A stretch of 10,105 nt of DNA from the NCBI GenBank assembly GCA_031284665.1, contig JAITXR010000255.1, positions 1 to 10,105 on the forward strand. The letters are read 5' to 3'. This document shows positions 740 through 7,933 of the stretch, piece by piece. The stretch comes from Paludibacter sp. (GTDB lineage: Bacteria > Bacteroidota > Bacteroidia > Bacteroidales > Paludibacteraceae). A program made the position numbers and the translations under genes. The notes below the pieces were generated by a model. The model worked only from the letters and a program-made list of their open reading frames with translations. It had not been told where the DNA came from and did not search any database. The stretch's first letter is position 1. The number at the start of each line of letters is the position of its first letter.

Positions 740-881
740 TTACATTTTTTTATTTTCTATCCGACTGTGCAATTTCTTCAATAGGAATATATTAACATAG
801 AATTATCTAAAAATTGTGGATTTATATTGTTTTTACGTAAATAATACTTCTCACAGCCATTTTATTTATTTATTTTTTTGT

Positions 882-920
882 TATTTTTGTCGTTCGGTAA
901 TGTTTTATTTTATACTTTTG
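882..920 (+). promoter_or_regulatory. Candidate promoter for the PASTA gene
   Basis: TTTG at 886-889 and TACTTTTG at 913-920 are separated by 23 bases, within the Bacteroidota TTTG / TAnnTTTG range, and would place initiation near 927, 20 bases before the ATG at 947. TATTTTTG at 882-889 could itself be a -7 box, but it lacks a clear -33 partner. The upstream half belongs to a 34-base segment that recurs before the ECF sigma gene. Confidence 0.35.
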
Positions 921-2972: not shown

Positions 2973-3019
2973 AAAATCCTGATTCAGACAATATGAAATC
3001 TGAAAACAGGATTTTTTTT
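2973..3019 (+). terminator. Intrinsic terminator downstream of rluD
   Basis: AAAATCCTG (2973-2981) pairs with CAGGATTTT (3007-3015), and an inner TTCAGA (2983-2988) pairs with TCTGAA (2999-3004), separated by a small asymmetric bulge. A run of eight T (3012-3019) follows. This should end the PASTA-rluD transcript and insulate the sigma-factor locus. Confidence 0.75.
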
Positions 3020-3046
3020 GTTATTTTTGTTGTTCAGTAAAATTTT
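3013..3046 (+). repeat. 34-base leader segment shared with the PASTA gene
   Basis: These 34 bases match 873-906 at 30 positions (differences at 3031, 3036, 3041 and 3042). Both copies contain TTATTTTTGT followed by GTTC and GTAA, and both lie 60-100 bases before a start codon. The shared core includes TATTTTTG, a -7-like box. The copies may be promoter elements or copies of a short dispersed repeat. Confidence 0.5.
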
Positions 3047-3108
3047 TTTGATTTTCTTGCAACGAAACTGCAACAAATTGCATCTATATAATAAAACAAG
3101 TTTTTTTA

Positions 3109-3633
3109 ATGCCGCTAATTGAATTAATCGAAGGTTGCCGACAAAACAAACATTTGGCACAACGAACGCTGTATGAGCAGTTTGCTCCTGCAATGTTAAG
3201 TTTGTGTGTGCGATATATCGGCGACTACGAAATAGCCCGCGATGCCCTGCAAGAAGGCTTTGTCAAGGTTTTTTCAAAAATTGACGATTATAATGGCAAT
3301 GGCTCATTTGAAGGATGGATGCGGAAAATAATCGTAAATACGGTACTTGAAATGTTGAGAAAAAGCAGATTGAAAAACAATGTCGATATTGCTGAAATTG
3401 AAATTGAAAATTCCGATATTTCGGCATTTGAAAAACTTTCGGCTGAGGACTTGTTAAATTTGATAGCCTCGCTGCCCGATTCTTTTCGCGTAATATTTAA
3501 TCTACACGCCGTAGAAGAATATTCGCACAAGGAAATAGGCGAAATGCTTAAAATAAAAGAAGTTACAGTGCGTTCAAACTATTTTAGAGCAAGGGAAATA
3601 TTAAGAAAAAAATGTATAGAAATCTACAATTAA
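3109..3633 (+). CDS. ECF-family RNA polymerase sigma factor (Das-like)
   Basis: This 174-aa two-domain sigma-70 family protein has region 2 at about residues 20-85 (YEQFAPAMLSLCVRYIGD, DALQEGFVKVF, SFEGWMRKIIVNT) and region 4 at about 118-167 (LPDSFRVIFNLHAVEEYSHKEIGEML plus the helix-turn-helix VTVRSNYFRAREILRKK). Regions 1 and 3 are absent, as expected for ECF factors. It should direct RNA polymerase to a small set of envelope-related promoters and be held inactive by the membrane protein encoded next (4064-5287). In B. thetaiotaomicron the sigma factors paired with such partners are called Das and belong to ECF21; membership here is inferred from the partner, not computed. A GAAAC at 3064-3068 followed by TCTATA at 3083-3088 might be an autoregulated ECF promoter, but this is weak. 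The ATG at 3109 gives a normal-length start. Confidence 0.9.
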   Translation: MPLIELIEGCRQNKHLAQRTLYEQFAPAMLSLCVRYIGDYEIARDALQEGFVKVFSKIDDYNGNGSFEGWMRKIIVNTVLEMLRKSRLKNNVDIAEIEIENSDISAFEKLSAEDLLNLIASLPDSFRVIFNLHAVEEYSHKEIGEMLKIKEVTVRSNYFRAREILRKKCIEIYN

Positions 3634-3664
3634 AAATAATTTGAAATCAGTAAGTTTGTTTTAA

Positions 3665-3925
3665 ATGAAAAATTTGAATGCTTTGCATAGCCCCGATAGT
3701 TATCGGATAGTTTTGTTTTTGGATTGTTCCCTCGATAAATCGGGACACATCCGCGACATATCAGGACAGGTACATGACATATTAGGACAGGTCGAAAATA
3801 CTTCAATATTTGAACTGCCGCTTGATTTAACAAAGATGAAGGACTGCAGTTGTTGTCCTCATAATTACAGGGAAAAGTTTATCCCGTACTGTCAGGACAG
3901 CAATCCGGAAGAGTTTTATAATTGA
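3665..3925 (+). CDS. Small cysteine-containing ORF of doubtful coding status
   Basis: An 86-codon open frame lies between the sigma factor and its partner. It starts 32 bases after the sigma stop in a plausible TTTTAAATG context. Its middle (GHIRDIS, GQVHDIL, GQVENTS) is simply the translation of a 21-bp tandem repeat, and its first third crosses a palindrome, so those parts are probably not protein-derived. The last 29 codons from the ATG at 3835 (MKDCSCCPHN to EEFYN) look more protein-like, with three clustered cysteines and a fourth later. I recognise no family. It could be a small regulator, a gene remnant extended by repeats, or non-coding spacer. Confidence 0.25.
   Translation: MKNLNALHSPDSYRIVLFLDCSLDKSGHIRDISGQVHDILGQVENTSIFELPLDLTKMKDCSCCPHNYREKFIPYCQDSNPEEFYN
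3693..3793. repeat. Palindrome and 21-bp tandem repeat in the sigma/anti-sigma spacer
   Basis: CCGATA-GT-TATCGG at 3693-3706 is a small palindrome. From 3741 a 21-base unit repeats about 2.5 times (3741-3761, 3762-3782, 3783-3793), sharing GGACA near the start of each unit and GACATAT at the end of the first two; units 1 and 2 match at 15 of 21 positions. Repeats of this kind look like intergenic repeat material rather than coding sequence. Confidence 0.6.
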
Positions 3926-3943
3926 AATTAAGCCTCATACAGT

Positions 3944-4013
3944 TTAAAAACCTGTTAGGGTTAGAAGATATAATTCTTGAAATATTTACAGATTTAAAAC
4001 CTTAATAGGGTTA
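3944..4013. repeat. Two TTTAAAACC..TTAGGGTTA dispersed repeats
   Basis: The copies are at 3944-3963 (TTTAAAAACCTGTTAGGGTT) and 3993-4013 (TTTAAAACC TTAATAGGG TTA). A third relative at 7824-7842 forms one half of a larger palindrome. None overlaps a credible gene. They look like members of a short AT-rich intergenic repeat family. Confidence 0.6.
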
Positions 4014-4063
4014 AAACGCATTGTTTATTTAACAATATCGAAAAAAATATTTATTTACTAAAA

Positions 4064-5287
4064 ATGAGTAAAGCAACAAACATATTTAGCGAAAAACTAA
4101 AAAATCACGAAATGCCCATTGACGACAGTTTTTGGGCTGATATGGAAAAACGCTTGGATTCACAACATCGGAAACCTGCGCCGATTTGGTTGTGGGCTGG
4201 AGGAATAGCGGCATCGCTGGCTGTGATTTTAACATTGTATCCGTTAATGAAAACAGAAAATATTTCGCCAATCGTAGCCGAAATAATTGAAACACAAGAG
4301 GTGAACAATCCTGTTGAAAATTTGCTTGCTGAAAATACAAATAAAAAGGCTGACAGCGAAAATGTATCAAGCCGCAACAAACGAAAAAATATTGTTACAG
4401 AACATTATCCTGATACAATATTATGCGATTTCTCAATTACTATTCCCGAAACATCAAAATCCGAAAATCCGACAAACACAGCAGCCGAAGAAAAAACGCA
4501 AAGTAAAAATTCGCTTAAAGAATTGACTGCCAAAACAAATACGCCGGCAAAGGAAACAAATAAAAATGTTTACAAAGCAAAAAAAACAAAACAGCCATTT
4601 TCAATTGCTTTGGCGGCAAATTACAGTTCGGGTACAAGTAGCAGCGGGGGAAATTCGCCTGACAAATTCGCTGTGGCAAACACAAGTTTGTATGGTATTC
4701 AAAGATTAGCGGCTGAGGTTAGCGACGAAATGAATATTGACCAAATTTTAGAGCAATATCCCGACGAAAATCACTTGCCACCGCTGTCGATTAGTATTTC
4801 GCTGCGGAAAAACCTGAATAGCCGTTTTGCCCTCGAAACCGGATTGACTTACAGTTATTTACACTCAATTTACAACAACGACGAAACTTGGGGAAACGAC
4901 TCTTGGATACACGACCGCGCTACGCTGACACAGCATTATCTTGGCATTCCGCTCAATCTTATTACAAATATTATCTCAAACAAAGCGTGGAATATGTACG
5001 TTTCGCTTGGTGGAATGGTGGAAAAAGGTTTGTGGCTCGAATACAACCGAACGCAAACATATTCGTATTCCGAACAAGTTTATAATCAACATTTTCAGGA
5101 TAAAGTGCAAGGTGTTCAATGGTCAGTAGCCGCTGCGGTGGGGGCATCTTACAATTTGTCGAAAAATTTCTCGCTTTATTTAGAGCCGAAAATAAATTAT
5201 TATTTCGATTGCAAACAACCACAAAGTTTCCGAACAGCAAGTCCTCTAAATCTGGGCTTAAACGCCGGAATAAGAGTGGAAATTTAA
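4064..5287 (+). CDS. Dual membrane-spanning anti-sigma protein (Dma-like) with C-terminal outer-membrane beta-barrel
   Basis: This 407-aa protein has four visible parts. A cytoplasmic N-terminus (1-40) contains FSEKLKNHEMPIDDSFWADMEKRL split as a short helix pair, the W-x-x-(I/M)-E-x-x-L pattern of Bacteroidota anti-sigma tails. One membrane helix follows (41-62, IWLWAGGIAASLAVILTLYP). Residues 63-177 form a polar Asn/Lys/Thr/Glu-rich linker long enough to cross the periplasm. Residues 178-407 have alternating amphipathic strands (SIALAANYSS, LSISISLRKN, FALETGLTYSYL, WNMYVSLGGMV, VQWSVAAAVGASYNL, FSLYLEPKINYYF, LNLGLNAGIRVEI), as in OMP_b-brl_2-type eight-stranded barrels. There is no cleavable signal peptide. 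The same layout defines the Dma proteins of B. thetaiotaomicron, which span both membranes, restrain an ECF sigma factor and affect vesicle formation. Here it would inhibit the sigma factor encoded at 3109-3633 and sense outer-membrane state. The residues contacting sigma are inferred. Confidence 0.82.
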   Translation: MSKATNIFSEKLKNHEMPIDDSFWADMEKRLDSQHRKPAPIWLWAGGIAASLAVILTLYPLMKTENISPIVAEIIETQEVNNPVENLLAENTNKKADSENVSSRNKRKNIVTEHYPDTILCDFSITIPETSKSENPTNTAAEEKTQSKNSLKELTAKTNTPAKETNKNVYKAKKTKQPFSIALAANYSSGTSSSGGNSPDKFAVANTSLYGIQRLAAEVSDEMNIDQILEQYPDENHLPPLSISISLRKNLNSRFALETGLTYSYLHSIYNNDETWGNDSWIHDRATLTQHYLGIPLNLITNIISNKAWNMYVSLGGMVEKGLWLEYNRTQTYSYSEQVYNQHFQDKVQGVQWSVAAAVGASYNLSKNFSLYLEPKINYYFDCKQPQSFRTASPLNLGLNAGIRVEI

Positions 5288-5330
5288 TAAAATTACGAAA
5301 TTGCTATAACTATTTAATAATAAAACAATT

Positions 5331-6614
5331 ATGAAAAAACTTTACTTTTTATTTTTAGCCATTTTCGCTGGACTAATATTTATTTCTTGCGATAAAAGTT
5401 ACACCGAAACTGTAACTTATCAAATCAATGAGCCGATACTTATGAGTACATCCGATTTACGCTCGTCAGTAAAAGTTACGTCAACAACCAATAAAATAGA
5501 AAATTACGGTAAAATTTGCTTTTACAAAAATTTTCTCTACATTGCCGAAACCGGCAAAGGCATTCACATTATTAACAACACTAATCCTGCACAGCCGTCA
5601 GTTGTCGGTTTTATCGAACTTTTAGGCAATTACGATATGGCTATCCGCAACAACACGCTTTATGCCGATATGCTTACTAACCTCGTGTGGTTCGACATTA
5701 GCAACCCAAGTGCGCCTGTAGCAGCCGGATGTATGGCAAATGCCTTCCCAGCATTTTTGCCTCCCTGCGACAATGGATATGGCTACGATTACAATCTGGT
5801 TTATGCCTTGCAGCACAATAGCGACAGTGTGATTGTGGGCTGGAACACGGTGGAACGAACAGAGGATGTAACCCGTTATCGCGAATCGTGGTGGGGTGGA
5901 ATTTGGAATAAAAGCGAACTTTATACTGCTGTCCCTTTGACAGATAGCGGCAATTCAACAGGAGTAAACGGCTCAATGTCGAGTTTTGCGCTTTATAATG
6001 ATTATTTATATTCGGTAATGAACAATAAAATGACGGTAATTTCGCTCACAGGTGCAGAACCGAAAATTGCAGCCGACAATATTTATATCGGATATAATGT
6101 TGAAACAATTTTCAGTTACAAAAACGCAATGTTTATGGGCACACCAACCGGATTACTAATTTATTCGGTAACTAACCCGATACATCCTGTTTTGTGTTCG
6201 CAAATTTCGCACGTTTACGGCTGCGACCCGGTAGTGGTGGAAAACGATTTGGCGTATGTTACGGTACATTCGGGCAATACTTGCGGACAAAACGATAACG
6301 AATTGTTTGTGATAGATGTTTCGGATATTAGAAGTCCGCAGCAACTTGTAAGTTACAAAATGACTTCACCAAAAGGGCTTGGAATCGACAATGGCACTCT
6401 GTTTGTGTGCGACAACGGATTGAAAATATTCAATGCCGAAAATCCTCAAACCATCATTGCAAATCAACTTGCACATTATACAGGAATGAACGGTTACGAT
6501 GTTATTCCATTCAACGATGTGTTAATGATGATAGCCGAAGATGGTCTATATCAGTACAATTACAGTGATTTAAATCACATTCAATTAATCAGCAAATTAA
6601 AATTTAACAATTAA
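5331..6614 (+). CDS. LVIVD-repeat lipoprotein, predicted beta-propeller
   Basis: This 427-aa secreted lipoprotein has a lipobox LIFISC with the lipid-carrying Cys20 after a basic, hydrophobic leader. The mature part holds degenerate repeats of the LVIVD type: a hydrophobic 'what it shows' strand, then L-x-V-[FIV]-D-[IV]-S-[ND]-P-x-x-P. Clear units are GIHIINNTNPAQP near 77-89, LVWFDISNPSAP near 118-129, LLIYSVTNPIHP near 265-276 and LFVIDVSDIRSP near 325-336, with weaker units between and after. Such proteins are thought to fold as beta-propellers; no enzymatic motif is visible, so a binding or scaffold role at the envelope is inferred. The gene starts 43 bases after the Dma-like gene with no terminator between, in the same AAAACAATTATG context as the next gene. 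It is probably co-transcribed and may be a target or sensor component of the sigma system. Confidence 0.8.
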   Translation: MKKLYFLFLAIFAGLIFISCDKSYTETVTYQINEPILMSTSDLRSSVKVTSTTNKIENYGKICFYKNFLYIAETGKGIHIINNTNPAQPSVVGFIELLGNYDMAIRNNTLYADMLTNLVWFDISNPSAPVAAGCMANAFPAFLPPCDNGYGYDYNLVYALQHNSDSVIVGWNTVERTEDVTRYRESWWGGIWNKSELYTAVPLTDSGNSTGVNGSMSSFALYNDYLYSVMNNKMTVISLTGAEPKIAADNIYIGYNVETIFSYKNAMFMGTPTGLLIYSVTNPIHPVLCSQISHVYGCDPVVVENDLAYVTVHSGNTCGQNDNELFVIDVSDIRSPQQLVSYKMTSPKGLGIDNGTLFVCDNGLKIFNAENPQTIIANQLAHYTGMNGYDVIPFNDVLMMIAEDGLYQYNYSDLNHIQLISKLKFNN

Positions 6615-6633
6615 TTATTCACTTAAAACAATT

Positions 6634-7377
6634 ATGAAAACTATTATCAAAACATTTATCACTCTGGCGGCAATTACCTTAATGTTCGCCTCCTGCAACA
6701 AAGCGGATGACAAAAAAAACACTATGTATCAGGCTATTGTAACTGTCGAAAACCCTGACAGCACAACAACATTTTACCTGAAAACCGAAAATCAATTACG
6801 CTTGTTTACAAAAACAACAAGTTTTATTCCTGCCAACGGCTCGCGCTTGTTTGTTTATTTTACAATTGTAGAAGAAATGCCCGAAGGCAGCAATTATGAT
6901 TACGAAGTGGCACTGCAAGGTTACGAAGATATTCTCACAAAAGAAATTTTCAATATTACACCCGAGGCTCAGGACAGCATTGGTAATGACCCTATCGAAA
7001 TATCAAACCTTTGGATAGCAAGCAATTACCTGACGGTTGAATTTATGGTTTATCGTTCTAATTTGCCAATTTCGCATTATATCAATCTTGTAGCCGACAG
7101 TTCAAAACATTATGACGACTCGGCTGTTCATTTGGAATTGCGCCACAATGCACGAAACGATTATCCTGATTTTCGCTCATTTAGTTTGGCATCGTTCAAT
7201 CTTTTGCCACTAAAAGAAAATGCCGAAGGTGATTCGATAACGCTTGTCATTCACAGTAAAGAGTATGTAAATTCGGAGAAAGACCGCACTATTGTCTATA
7301 AATTCTCATCTGAATTGAATCAAACACGAAAATTCGACAACAATTATATTTTCCCCTCATCTGCCATGATAAAATAA
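6634..7377 (+). CDS. NigD-like lipoprotein
   Basis: This 247-aa lipoprotein has a lipobox FASC (lipidated Cys21). It shows the NigD-like two-domain plan: an N-terminal OB-like part (about 28-115, YQAIVTVENPDSTTTFYLKT through YEVALQGYEDILTKEI) and a C-terminal beta-sandwich (about 122-235). The latter contains the family motif region IEISNLWIASNYLTVEF, SHYINLV and LELRHNARNDYPDF. NigD-like proteins are common in Bacteroidales but have no settled biochemical role; the name comes from the nig (nigrescin) gene cluster of Prevotella. The residues after the lipid cysteine (NKADDKK) resemble a lipoprotein surface-export signal, so the protein may face outward. It lies 19 bases after the LVIVD gene and is followed by a strong terminator, making it the last gene of the sigma/Dma unit. 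Confidence 0.78.
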   Translation: MKTIIKTFITLAAITLMFASCNKADDKKNTMYQAIVTVENPDSTTTFYLKTENQLRLFTKTTSFIPANGSRLFVYFTIVEEMPEGSNYDYEVALQGYEDILTKEIFNITPEAQDSIGNDPIEISNLWIASNYLTVEFMVYRSNLPISHYINLVADSSKHYDDSAVHLELRHNARNDYPDFRSFSLASFNLLPLKENAEGDSITLVIHSKEYVNSEKDRTIVYKFSSELNQTRKFDNNYIFPSSAMIK

Positions 7378-7410
7378 ACCTTTTCTGTGAAAAATTATTT
7401 TGTTGTCGAT

Positions 7411-7451
7411 AAGGAATTTGAACACCGGGATAGTTCAAATTCCTTTCTTTT
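7411..7451 (+). terminator. Intrinsic terminator of the sigma/Dma operon
   Basis: AAGGAATTTGAAC (7411-7423) pairs perfectly with GTTCAAATTCCTT (7433-7445) across a 9-base loop. TTCTTTTT follows (7444-7451). It sits 33 bases after the NigD-like stop and should end the unit. Confidence 0.75.
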
Positions 7452-7455
7452 TGTG

Positions 7456-7514: not shown

Positions 7515-7572
7515 AGTTACCTAATTAGTAGTTTTGTCCTTATTCTTTGCTCTTATCAATTATCCATTATTT

Positions 7573-7773
7573 ATGTTTTCCAATCCAATAATATGCCCAT
7601 GTCTGGGTTTGCTAAAATCTGATATTGAAGACGTTATACGTTCAAAATCATTAACCACCGTATCCGAAATAAGCCACTCCATCGGGGCAGGCTCAATTTG
7701 CGGTGCATGCCTCAGCGATTTGCAGGAAATTTTAGACGAAGTTAATAGGGGAGGAGCGAGTAGCAAAATATGA
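7573..7773 (+). CDS. BFD-like [2Fe-2S]-binding small protein
   Basis: This 66-aa protein has the bacterioferritin-associated ferredoxin pattern: Cys8-x-Cys10, 32 residues, then Cys43-x-x-Cys46 (ICPCLG and GAGSICGACLSDLQEIL). The four cysteines would hold a [2Fe-2S] cluster, and the spacing matches E. coli Bfd within one residue. Bfd reduces bacterioferritin to release iron; stand-alone domains of this type also serve as small electron carriers, and no bacterioferritin gene is visible nearby, so the partner is unknown. The ATG at 7573 is preferred over an in-frame ATG at 7534 because the family begins just before the first cysteine. It lies between a palindromic repeat upstream and a CCTGTTAGGG palindrome downstream and appears monocistronic. 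Confidence 0.75.
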   Translation: MFSNPIICPCLGLLKSDIEDVIRSKSLTTVSEISHSIGAGSICGACLSDLQEILDEVNRGGASSKI

Positions 7774-7809
7774 GACGAGTACACAGCCGCAAATATTCTA
7801 CAAAAACTA

Positions 7810-7841
7810 ACCCTAACAGGGGTTTTAAACCCTGTTAGGGT
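7810..7841. repeat. CCCTGTTAGGG inverted-repeat element
   Basis: ACCCTAACAGGG (7810-7821) and CCCTGTTAGGGT (7830-7841) are exact inverse copies around GTTTTAAA. It lies 37 bases after the BFD-like stop. The right arm with its AAA flank matches the two copies in the sigma/Dma spacer. Without a T-run on either strand it is not a canonical terminator, though its stem could stop transcripts converging from both sides. Confidence 0.65.
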
Positions 7842-7933
7842 AATCCGTTTCTTATCATCTTAATCCCTAAAATCAGGAAAATCAAAGTTTAGGCAAAAAA
7901 GCAATGCCGGACTGATGTTGCTGTTATCGTTCT

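What the first reader, a model, noticed from the sequence alone, without database searches (positions are those of the whole stretch)
3109..7452. Das/Dma-type trans-envelope sigma-factor locus with two lipoprotein genes attached
An ECF sigma factor is paired with a single protein that shows an anti-sigma-like cytoplasmic tail, one inner-membrane helix, a roughly 115-residue disordered-looking periplasmic linker and a C-terminal outer-membrane beta-barrel. Established knowledge: in B. thetaiotaomicron such dual membrane-spanning anti-sigma (Dma) proteins control ECF21-family Das sigma factors and outer-membrane vesiculation. The LVIVD-repeat and NigD-like lipoproteins are directly downstream, with 43- and 19-base gaps, a shared AAAACAATTATG start context and one terminal hairpin. 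Inference: they are regulon output or ligand-sensing partners of the barrel. Their combination with Dma may be undescribed.
Basis: partly seen in the sequence, partly recalled or inferred. Interest (0 to 1): 0.75.

Follow-up and report, generated by a model that had tools for sequence, protein, structure and literature searches.

The report
Self-controlled surface-lipoprotein operon, Dma type
A bacterium of the Bacteroidales group carries a switch protein that seems to span both of its membranes, and comparison with related genomes suggests that the switch turns on a recurring set of surface proteins through one recognisable promoter sequence.

Summary
In detail: an ECF sigma gene, a Dma-type anti-sigma gene, an LVIVD beta-propeller lipoprotein gene, a NigD lipoprotein gene and a terminator hairpin. 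New here: (1) The pair lies in a supported clade apart from the Dma2-type and NigD-linked (EcfO/Dma1-like) loci. (2) 71 of 74 testable loci of this LVIVD subfamily have Dma upstream, sometimes with a serpin between; among clade members found through Dma alone, 10 of 16 have LVIVD. LVIVD plus NigD was seen only here and in one relative. (3) A promoter motif, TGCAAC-N17-CATC, stands before sigma in 59 of 63 clade members (3058-3084 here) but not before Dma (0/65), LVIVD (0/62), serpin (0/22) or linked NigD (0/4): one self-activated promoter probably drives the operon. (4) NigD genes elsewhere in relatives carry the motif: 16 of 40 against 1 of 275 other genes, all 16 in genomes with a Dma match. 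Four of 23 detached LVIVD genes carry it too. The lipoproteins are best read as regulon output. Dma control of NigD is published; the LVIVD and serpin links were not met in the library searched. Signal, sigma binding and vesiculation are untested.

The parts
3056..3090 (+). Predicted sigma-dependent (autoregulatory) promoter; core TGCAAC-N17-CATC at 3058-3084
   Evidence: 20.7 bits with the profile from 58 relatives (the window among them); next best place in the whole window 3.4 bits; pattern match
3109..3633 (+). ECF sigma factor, 174 aa (Das/EcfO type)
   Evidence: PF04542, PF08281; 39% identity to the sigma factors of a Dma2-type and a NigD-linked locus of Bacteroides sp. 519
3634..4063 (.). 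430-base sigma-Dma gap holding repeats dispersed in the genome (palindrome 3691-3706; repeat stretches about 3711-3751 and 3919-4018)
   Evidence: 15 places with the palindrome at up to 1 mismatch, this one included, control 0; 16 further matches to parts of the gap, with 40 of 106 candidates scored; gap sizes in relatives
4064..5287 (+). Dma-type anti-sigma: cytoplasmic helices (aa 1-40), membrane helix (41-61), disordered linker (62-178), outer-membrane barrel (179-407)
   Evidence: model mc4e43f737e44, mean pLDDT 72; PF13568; OmpA barrels head the Foldseek list
5331..6614 (+). LVIVD-repeat beta-propeller lipoprotein, 427 aa, lipobox Cys20
   Evidence: PF08309; model mean pLDDT 87, pTM 0.83, about seven blades by my count of its strands; Cys20 invariant in 43 aligned sequences
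6634..7377 (+). NigD-family lipoprotein, 247 aa
   Evidence: PF17415, PF12667; NF051862; solved relatives 4pqx, 4j8q, 3k6o, 3qwn
7411..7445 (+). Terminator-like hairpin closing the operon
   Evidence: 13-bp stem, -16.1 kcal/mol, z -3.47

Best explanation
A self-amplifying trans-envelope switch. The Dma-type protein is anchored in both membranes and holds the ECF sigma factor at the inner membrane with its N-terminal helices. A change felt by the barrel (most likely outer-membrane or surface stress) frees the sigma factor. The sigma factor then reads the TGCAAC-N17-CATC promoter at 3058-3084, in front of its own gene, and transcribes sigma, Dma, LVIVD propeller and NigD as one message ending at the hairpin at 7411-7445. 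The output is a set of surface lipoproteins that remodels or shields the outer membrane. In related genomes members of the same set (LVIVD, NigD, sometimes a serpin, other small lipoproteins) are in this operon or scattered, often under the same promoter motif. Shown here computationally: homology, architecture, conserved gene order, the promoter motif and its distribution. Inferred: sigma binding, release by signal, surface exposure, shielding and vesiculation.
For: Dma architecture. Sigma directly upstream on the same strand in 48 of 48 full-length Dma genes surveyed, plus sigma-Dma fusions in L080 and L206. LVIVD: 71 of 74 loci with enough upstream DNA have Dma upstream, 55 within 400 bases. 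Promoter dyad GCAAC-N17-CATC exact in 58 of 107 sigma upstream regions; the best dyad in five shuffles reached 7. By profile: 59/63 in the window's clade, 14/15 and 10/10 in two other groups of rows, 1/535 shuffled regions, and none before Dma 0/65, LVIVD 0/62, serpin 0/22, linked NigD 0/4. Unlinked NigD: 16/40 over 10 bits against 1/275 neighbouring genes, Fisher p 3e-15. Within the window's family, by my hand count over with L257 added: 16/17 unlinked NigD genes in genomes with a Dma match have the motif, 0/9 in genomes without (p 3e-6; by genus 7/8 against 0/5, p 0.005). Detached LVIVD genes with the motif: L146, L159, L165, L166. Linked NigD of this clade form one group (support 95) near motif-bearing unlinked NigD. 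Published precedent: Dma1/Das1 and EcfO/Reo drive nigD genes.
Against: No expression, binding or localisation data. The 430-base repeat-holding gap, with a weak hairpin at 3693-3706 (fold z -1.38), could uncouple Dma and the lipoproteins from sigma in this one genome. 24 of 40 unlinked NigD genes fall below 10 bits (23 if L257 is counted as motif-bearing), 11 of them in genomes with a Dma match. 19 of 23 LVIVD loci away from Dma lack the motif, among them G002's 58%-identical one; and two of the four that have it (L165 in G128, L166 in G104) are in genomes not among the 47 with a Dma match, though a weak sigma-Dma pair shows in G128 (L164). The motif is weak or different in the Dma1/Dma2-type clade (6/19), so carrying functions over from B. 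thetaiotaomicron is uncertain. One partial Dma-like ORF (L078) has no sigma gene beside it. The profile was built from the sigma upstream regions, so its counts before sigma are partly circular; its counts before NigD and LVIVD are not.
Confidence: 0.78

Rival explanations
1. The LVIVD propeller is not mainly output but a co-receptor or negative-feedback partner of the Dma barrel: as a lipoprotein in the outer membrane it binds a ligand or the barrel and sets the trigger point, while NigD and serpin are the output.
For: This LVIVD subfamily is tied closely to Dma (71/74 loci), while of 52 NigD places in the relatives 10 lie beside Dma (samples differ). LVIVD presence is clustered on the sigma-Dma tree, 7 label changes against 34 in shuffles. 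An operon product made only on activation suits feedback.
Against: Six of the 65 clade members lack LVIVD within 3.5 kb: two carry NigD instead (L038, L043), two a serpin (L036, L037; L036 at a contig end), two neither (L031 with 1.6 kb of contig left, L033); of the 16 members found through Dma alone, 10 have it. LVIVD also occurs detached with the motif (L146, L159, L165, L166), as output genes do. G002 has a 58%-identical LVIVD and no Dma match.
Confidence: 0.25
2. The lipoproteins are simply neighbours kept together by chance or by a housekeeping transcript, with no sigma-dependent control.
For: Sigma-70-like matches in the region are at the chance level (17 found, 16.4 expected), so such a promoter can be neither shown nor excluded. 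A stretch before sigma repeats one before the PASTA gene (873 and 3013, 86%) and resembles a Bacteroidota housekeeping promoter (recalled), so basal transcription is likely.
Against: Gene order recurs across many genera, and the motif stands before detached NigD and some detached LVIVD genes.
Confidence: 0.06
3. The locus is the straight counterpart of Das1/Dma1 or EcfO/Reo, with the same regulon and vesiculation role.
For: Same architecture; 30% identity over residues 138-404 and 39% sigma identity to a NigD-linked Dma locus of Bacteroides sp. 519; a NigD gene present.
Against: The tree puts the window in a separate supported clade (65 rows, 100) from the clade with the NigD-linked and Dma2-type loci (19 rows, 96) (quick tree, unrooted). 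Bacteroides sp. 519 has an LVIVD-type locus besides those two. The promoter motif differs.
Confidence: 0.12

Closest known systems
Das2-Dma2 of B. thetaiotaomicron (BT_1559-BT_1558) with BT_1557 (DUF4943) and BT_1556 (DUF4858), PMC13088901
   Same: ECF sigma plus dual-membrane anti-sigma; neighbouring genes induced when Dma2 is removed (passages). The same operon type was recognised in Bacteroides sp. 519 (L202: DUF4943, DUF4858); 25% identity over nearly the whole Dma
   Different: Other cargo genes, separate tree clade, weak TGCAAC-CATC motif (5.7 bits)
EcfO-Reo (Phocaeicola vulgatus M0N98_03761-03760; nigD M0N98_03762 next to it by locus number; PMC9308784, PMC13114119) and Das1-Dma1 with nigD1 BT_4005 (PMC13088901)
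   Same: Same architecture; NigD lipoproteins as regulon output (passages)
   Different: L203, taken here as this type by its layout, has a divergent NigD gene, no LVIVD gene in the fetched 10 kb and a different promoter (-3.5 bits); the published sequences themselves could not be compared
Dma3-type sigma-Dma fusion (described in PMC13088901, passage)
   Same: One-protein version of the same switch; seen here in Parabacteroides goldsteinii L206 (549 aa) and in L080 (601 aa)
   Different: Fused, not two genes
LVIVD-repeat beta-propeller proteins (PF08309) and BamB
   Same: Propeller fold; BamB, a lipoprotein propeller, heads the Foldseek list
   Different: About 10% identity and rmsd 5-15 A to BamB, so only the fold class is shown

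Membership tests
Dma (dual membrane-spanning anti-sigma) | N-terminal cytoplasmic anti-sigma domain, membrane helix, long disordered tether, C-terminal barrel (as described in PMC13088901) | tested here: met
   AlphaFold model, PF13568; sigma binding itself not tested
Dma (dual membrane-spanning anti-sigma) | Encoded next to its ECF sigma factor | tested here: met
   Window; 48 of 48 full-length Dma genes in the survey
Dma (dual membrane-spanning anti-sigma) | Sequence homology to a recognised Dma | tested here: met
   Dma2-type protein of Bacteroides sp. 519, recognised by its DUF4943 and DUF4858 neighbours: 25% identity, E 8e-30; the B. thetaiotaomicron sequences were not at hand
Dma (dual membrane-spanning anti-sigma) | Inhibits its sigma factor | not testable with these tools
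   No co-fold or assay available
ECF21 sigma factors | Match to the ECF21 group profile | not tested
   No ECF classification library offered; 39% identity to sigma factors of Dma2-type and NigD-linked loci is only a lead
NigD lipoproteins | NigD_C and NigD_N domains over cut-off; lipobox | tested here: met
   96.8 bits against 22.6 and 26.2 against 24.3, NF051862; lipobox Cys21 read from the sequence
LVIVD-repeat proteins | PF08309 over cut-off, propeller fold | tested here: met
BamB-like assembly lipoprotein | Close structural match to BamB | tested here: inconclusive
   Top of the Foldseek list but rmsd 5-15 A
Vesiculation regulator like Dma1/Dma2 | Loss raises outer-membrane vesicle yield | not testable with these tools
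   Needs experiment

The most novel reading that the evidence does not exclude
A Bacteroidales-wide branch of dual-membrane switches governs a previously unrecognised surface-defence regulon (beta-propeller, NigD, lipoprotein serpin, small lipoproteins) through one promoter code, TGCAAC-N17-CATC. Its hallmark propeller lipoprotein sits at the outer membrane with the Dma barrel and helps set or reset the trigger.
Probability: 0.3. Interest if true: 0.78.

Novelty: new variant of a known kind. Interest (0 to 1): 0.6.

Why it matters
What NigD proteins do, and what induces EcfO/Reo in the gut, are called open in the passages read (PMC13088901, PMC13114119). A promoter motif that can be searched in genomes, plus a recurring partner gene, turns this into direct tests. 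[quoted passage not shown] It also shows genes that lie in the operon in some genomes and under their own copy of the motif in others.

Tried and rejected
Rejected: the shared AAAACAATTATG start context as evidence of coupling (nearly the same before HtrA). Rejected: the 86-aa ORF at 3665-3925 as a gene (no Pfam hit; it overlaps dispersed repeats). Sigma-70-like promoter scan: at the chance level. PDB sequence search with the Dma alignment: no match at E 0.01. LVIVD alignment against PDB sequences: two weak matches, both named haloalkylphosphorus hydrolase. Wider regulon in the window's own genome: the loose pattern matches 12 times against 3 for its control; two sites besides the window's score over 20 bits (C50, 26.9; C55, 23.5), both near contig ends, so their target genes are cut off or missing. 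BamB as a specific relative: not among the 50 rows that VIA-align shows, which excludes nothing. Pfam names for lipoproteins after Dma in loci without LVIVD or NigD: none for the five scanned. The sigma profile took up one sigma-Dma fusion (L080) and then also hit Dma ORFs; each ORF was given its best-scoring label. Rows dropped: the tree used 109 of 120 sigma-Dma pairs (6 near-identical, 5 without a separate sigma ORF). Many tree rows came from the LVIVD search, so 59 of 65 is not a free frequency; members of that clade found through Dma alone have LVIVD in 10 of 16 (my count). The structure alignments held 51 and 43 sequences, of 63 Dma and 74 LVIVD listed plus the window. Of 52 NigD places I tested 40; of the other 12, 10 lie beside a Dma gene and two were not fetched (G065, G145). 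Absence of LVIVD rests on fetched stretches; L031, L036, L048, L056 and some others have little downstream DNA. 'Genome with Dma' means a match, a one-sequence search of draft genomes.
Full report
OBSERVATION. Family searches give an ECF sigma factor, an outer-membrane barrel at the C-terminus of the 407-aa protein, LVIVD repeats and NigD domains. The AlphaFold model of the 407-aa protein, made with 51 aligned sequences, has helices 3-14 and 21-35, a helix 41-61 of membrane-spanning length, a low-confidence stretch of about 117 residues and a barrel that is confident from about residue 231; OmpA barrels head its Foldseek list. A strong hairpin closes the operon.

SURVEY BY DMA. The Dma protein finds matches in 47 of 150 related genomes. 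I fetched 51 stretches around these matches and labelled neighbours with profiles grown from the window genes. All 48 full-length Dma genes (350-560 aa), the window included, have a sigma gene directly upstream on the same strand; 12 have LVIVD, 11 NigD and 6 a serpin nearby. Four further loci were short, cut or fused: L073, L075, L078 (a partial Dma with no sigma gene seen) and L080, a sigma-Dma fusion. LVIVD and NigD together occur only in the window and in L041, in different order. G078 and Paludibacter sp. UBA5753 share a contig of the same length and content (L039, L086), so the window's family is probably that of Paludibacter (inference).

SURVEY BY LVIVD. At least five of these contigs are also in the Dma survey. 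Six loci have too little upstream DNA. Of the other 74, 71 have a Dma gene upstream on the same strand, 55 within 400 bases. In 14 of the 16 wider gaps a serpin gene lies between (Pfam PF00079 at 379.1 and 370.5 bits for the two scanned); in one it is NigD (L147), in one only an antisense ORF (L155). Serpin genes, at least one of them partial, occur in 19 of the 80 loci. Twenty further LVIVD loci from the 150 relatives have no close sigma-Dma pair in the fetched stretch (L164 has a weak one). All but G002's are under 50% identical to the window's, so the tie is to one LVIVD subfamily. The best 120 of 1572 protein relatives bear no functional name.

TREE. In a tree of 109 sigma-Dma pairs the window lies in a 65-row clade (support 100), 59 of whose members have LVIVD. 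Many rows came in through the LVIVD search; of the 16 members found through Dma alone, 10 have LVIVD. Loci like the published kinds lie in another clade of 19 (support 96): L203, with a divergent NigD gene, taken as EcfO/Dma1-type by its layout, and L202, a Dma2-type locus by its DUF4943 and DUF4858 neighbours. LVIVD presence needs 7 changes against 34 on shuffled labels. This is a quick tree; the root is not inferred.

PROMOTER. Upstream of sigma, GCAAC-N17-CATC is exact in 58 of 107 loci, while the best dyad in each of five shuffles reached 5-7. A profile from these sites finds one strong place in the window, 3056-3090 (20.7 bits, next 3.4). It is found before sigma in 59/63 of the window's clade, 14/15 of a second clade, 10/10 of the remaining rows and 6/19 of the Dma1/2-type clade, and in 1 of 535 shuffled regions. 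Within the clade's operons it is absent before Dma (0/65), LVIVD (0/62), serpin (0/22) and NigD (0/4). The operon therefore most likely has a single sigma-dependent promoter, self-activated.

REGULON IN TRANS. The profile was made without NigD or LVIVD upstream regions, so these are independent tests. Of 40 NigD genes away from Dma, 16 have a site over 10 bits (13 over 12) against 1 of 275 neighbouring genes (0 over 12). Counting L257, whose start was miscalled, all 17 motif-bearing genes are in genomes where one search found a Dma match; of the 23 without motif, 11 are in such genomes and 12 are not (p 0.0003). Within the window's family the figures are 16/17 against 0/9 (p 3e-6), by genus 7/8 against 0/5 (p 0.005). 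Relatedness is not fully removed by this. Detached LVIVD genes with the motif: 2 of the 3 loci without Dma upstream (L146, L159, about 25 bits) and 2 of 20 in the relatives (L165 22.4, L166 15.2 bits); 19 of 23 lack it, and L165 and L166 are in genomes without a Dma match. In eight genomes a stricter pattern matches 30 times against 6 for the backward control. Genes next downstream include three sigma genes of such loci, two NigD and six other lipoproteins (lipobox by eye); for the other 19 sites I saw no such gene. One of the six is another propeller; the five others reach no Pfam cut-off. The NigD genes inside operons of this clade form one group (support 95) near motif-bearing detached NigD genes (wider group 82, not resolved), which fits a single move into the operon.

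MECHANISM. From this and the published Dma and EcfO/Reo work, the switch is held off by Dma and turned on by a signal at the barrel; it then amplifies itself and makes surface lipoproteins. Which signal, and what the lipoproteins do, are inferred only. In P. vulgatus the pair is induced by antibacterial toxins, with envelope stress as the likely signal, and in B. fragilis by oxygen (PMC9308784, PMC13114119; passages). NigD1 is needed for extra vesicles in the dma1 mutant (PMC13088901, passages). A protective surface coat is my reading of the serpin and NigD content.

ODDITY. Here sigma and Dma are 430 bases apart, second largest of 109. The gap carries repeats dispersed in this genome and a weak hairpin followed by T's, which may have loosened the coupling in this strain.

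LITERATURE. Seen as abstract and passages: PMC13088901; as passages only: PMC13114119, PMC9308784, PMC12596196, PMC8999054, PMC4404884. The founding papers (PMC10927553, PMC3536166) were not held, so I cannot say whether they mention LVIVD genes. Searches with NigD, LVIVD, Dma1, Das1, ECF21, EcfO, serpin and related terms listed no paper that by title or start of abstract links LVIVD or serpin genes to these pairs; several listings were capped (for example 12 of 1641), and full texts were not gone through.

VERDICT. A real, recurring module: a new variant of the Dma kind with a predicted regulon and promoter. The family is known; the LVIVD and serpin partners, the promoter motif and the in-operon or scattered regulon logic appear new as far as the searches reach.

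Noticed in passing
window 3634-4063 and 7808-7845: Dispersed intergenic repeats of this genome: a CCCCGATAGTTATCGG palindrome (15 places with at most one mismatch, control 0) and a CCTGTTAGGGTT-type repeat, the latter also forming a strong hairpin at about 7810-7841 (z -5.12).
   Followed up: partly
window 873-909 and 3013-3049: A 37-base stretch before the PASTA-protein gene is 86% identical to one before the sigma gene; it resembles a Bacteroidota housekeeping promoter (TAnnTTTG, recalled), suggesting a second, basal promoter for sigma.
   Followed up: no
L044, L083: Operon expansions: L044 has two LVIVD and two serpin genes after one Dma; L083 has two serpins and a small lipoprotein between Dma and LVIVD.
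   Followed up: no
L246 (Parabacteroides sp. PFB2-10), 1557-2825: A 423-aa lipoprotein with PD40/WD40-like propeller repeats directly behind a 26.9-bit copy of the promoter motif: a second propeller type in the predicted regulon.
   Followed up: no
G000:C50:313-339 and G000:C55:9809-9835: Two further strong copies of the motif in the window's own genome, both near contig ends; the first precedes a cut-off ORF with a signal-peptide-like start.
   Followed up: partly
L085, L093, L099, L104, L083: A family of about 150-aa lipoproteins, four of them with a conserved NYGTSFGEC- or SYGTSFGMC-like stretch, recurs between Dma and LVIVD; the two scanned have no Pfam match.
   Followed up: partly
window 7534-7773: A small BFD-like [2Fe-2S] ORF (PF04324) between the operon and the HtrA gene.
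   Followed up: no
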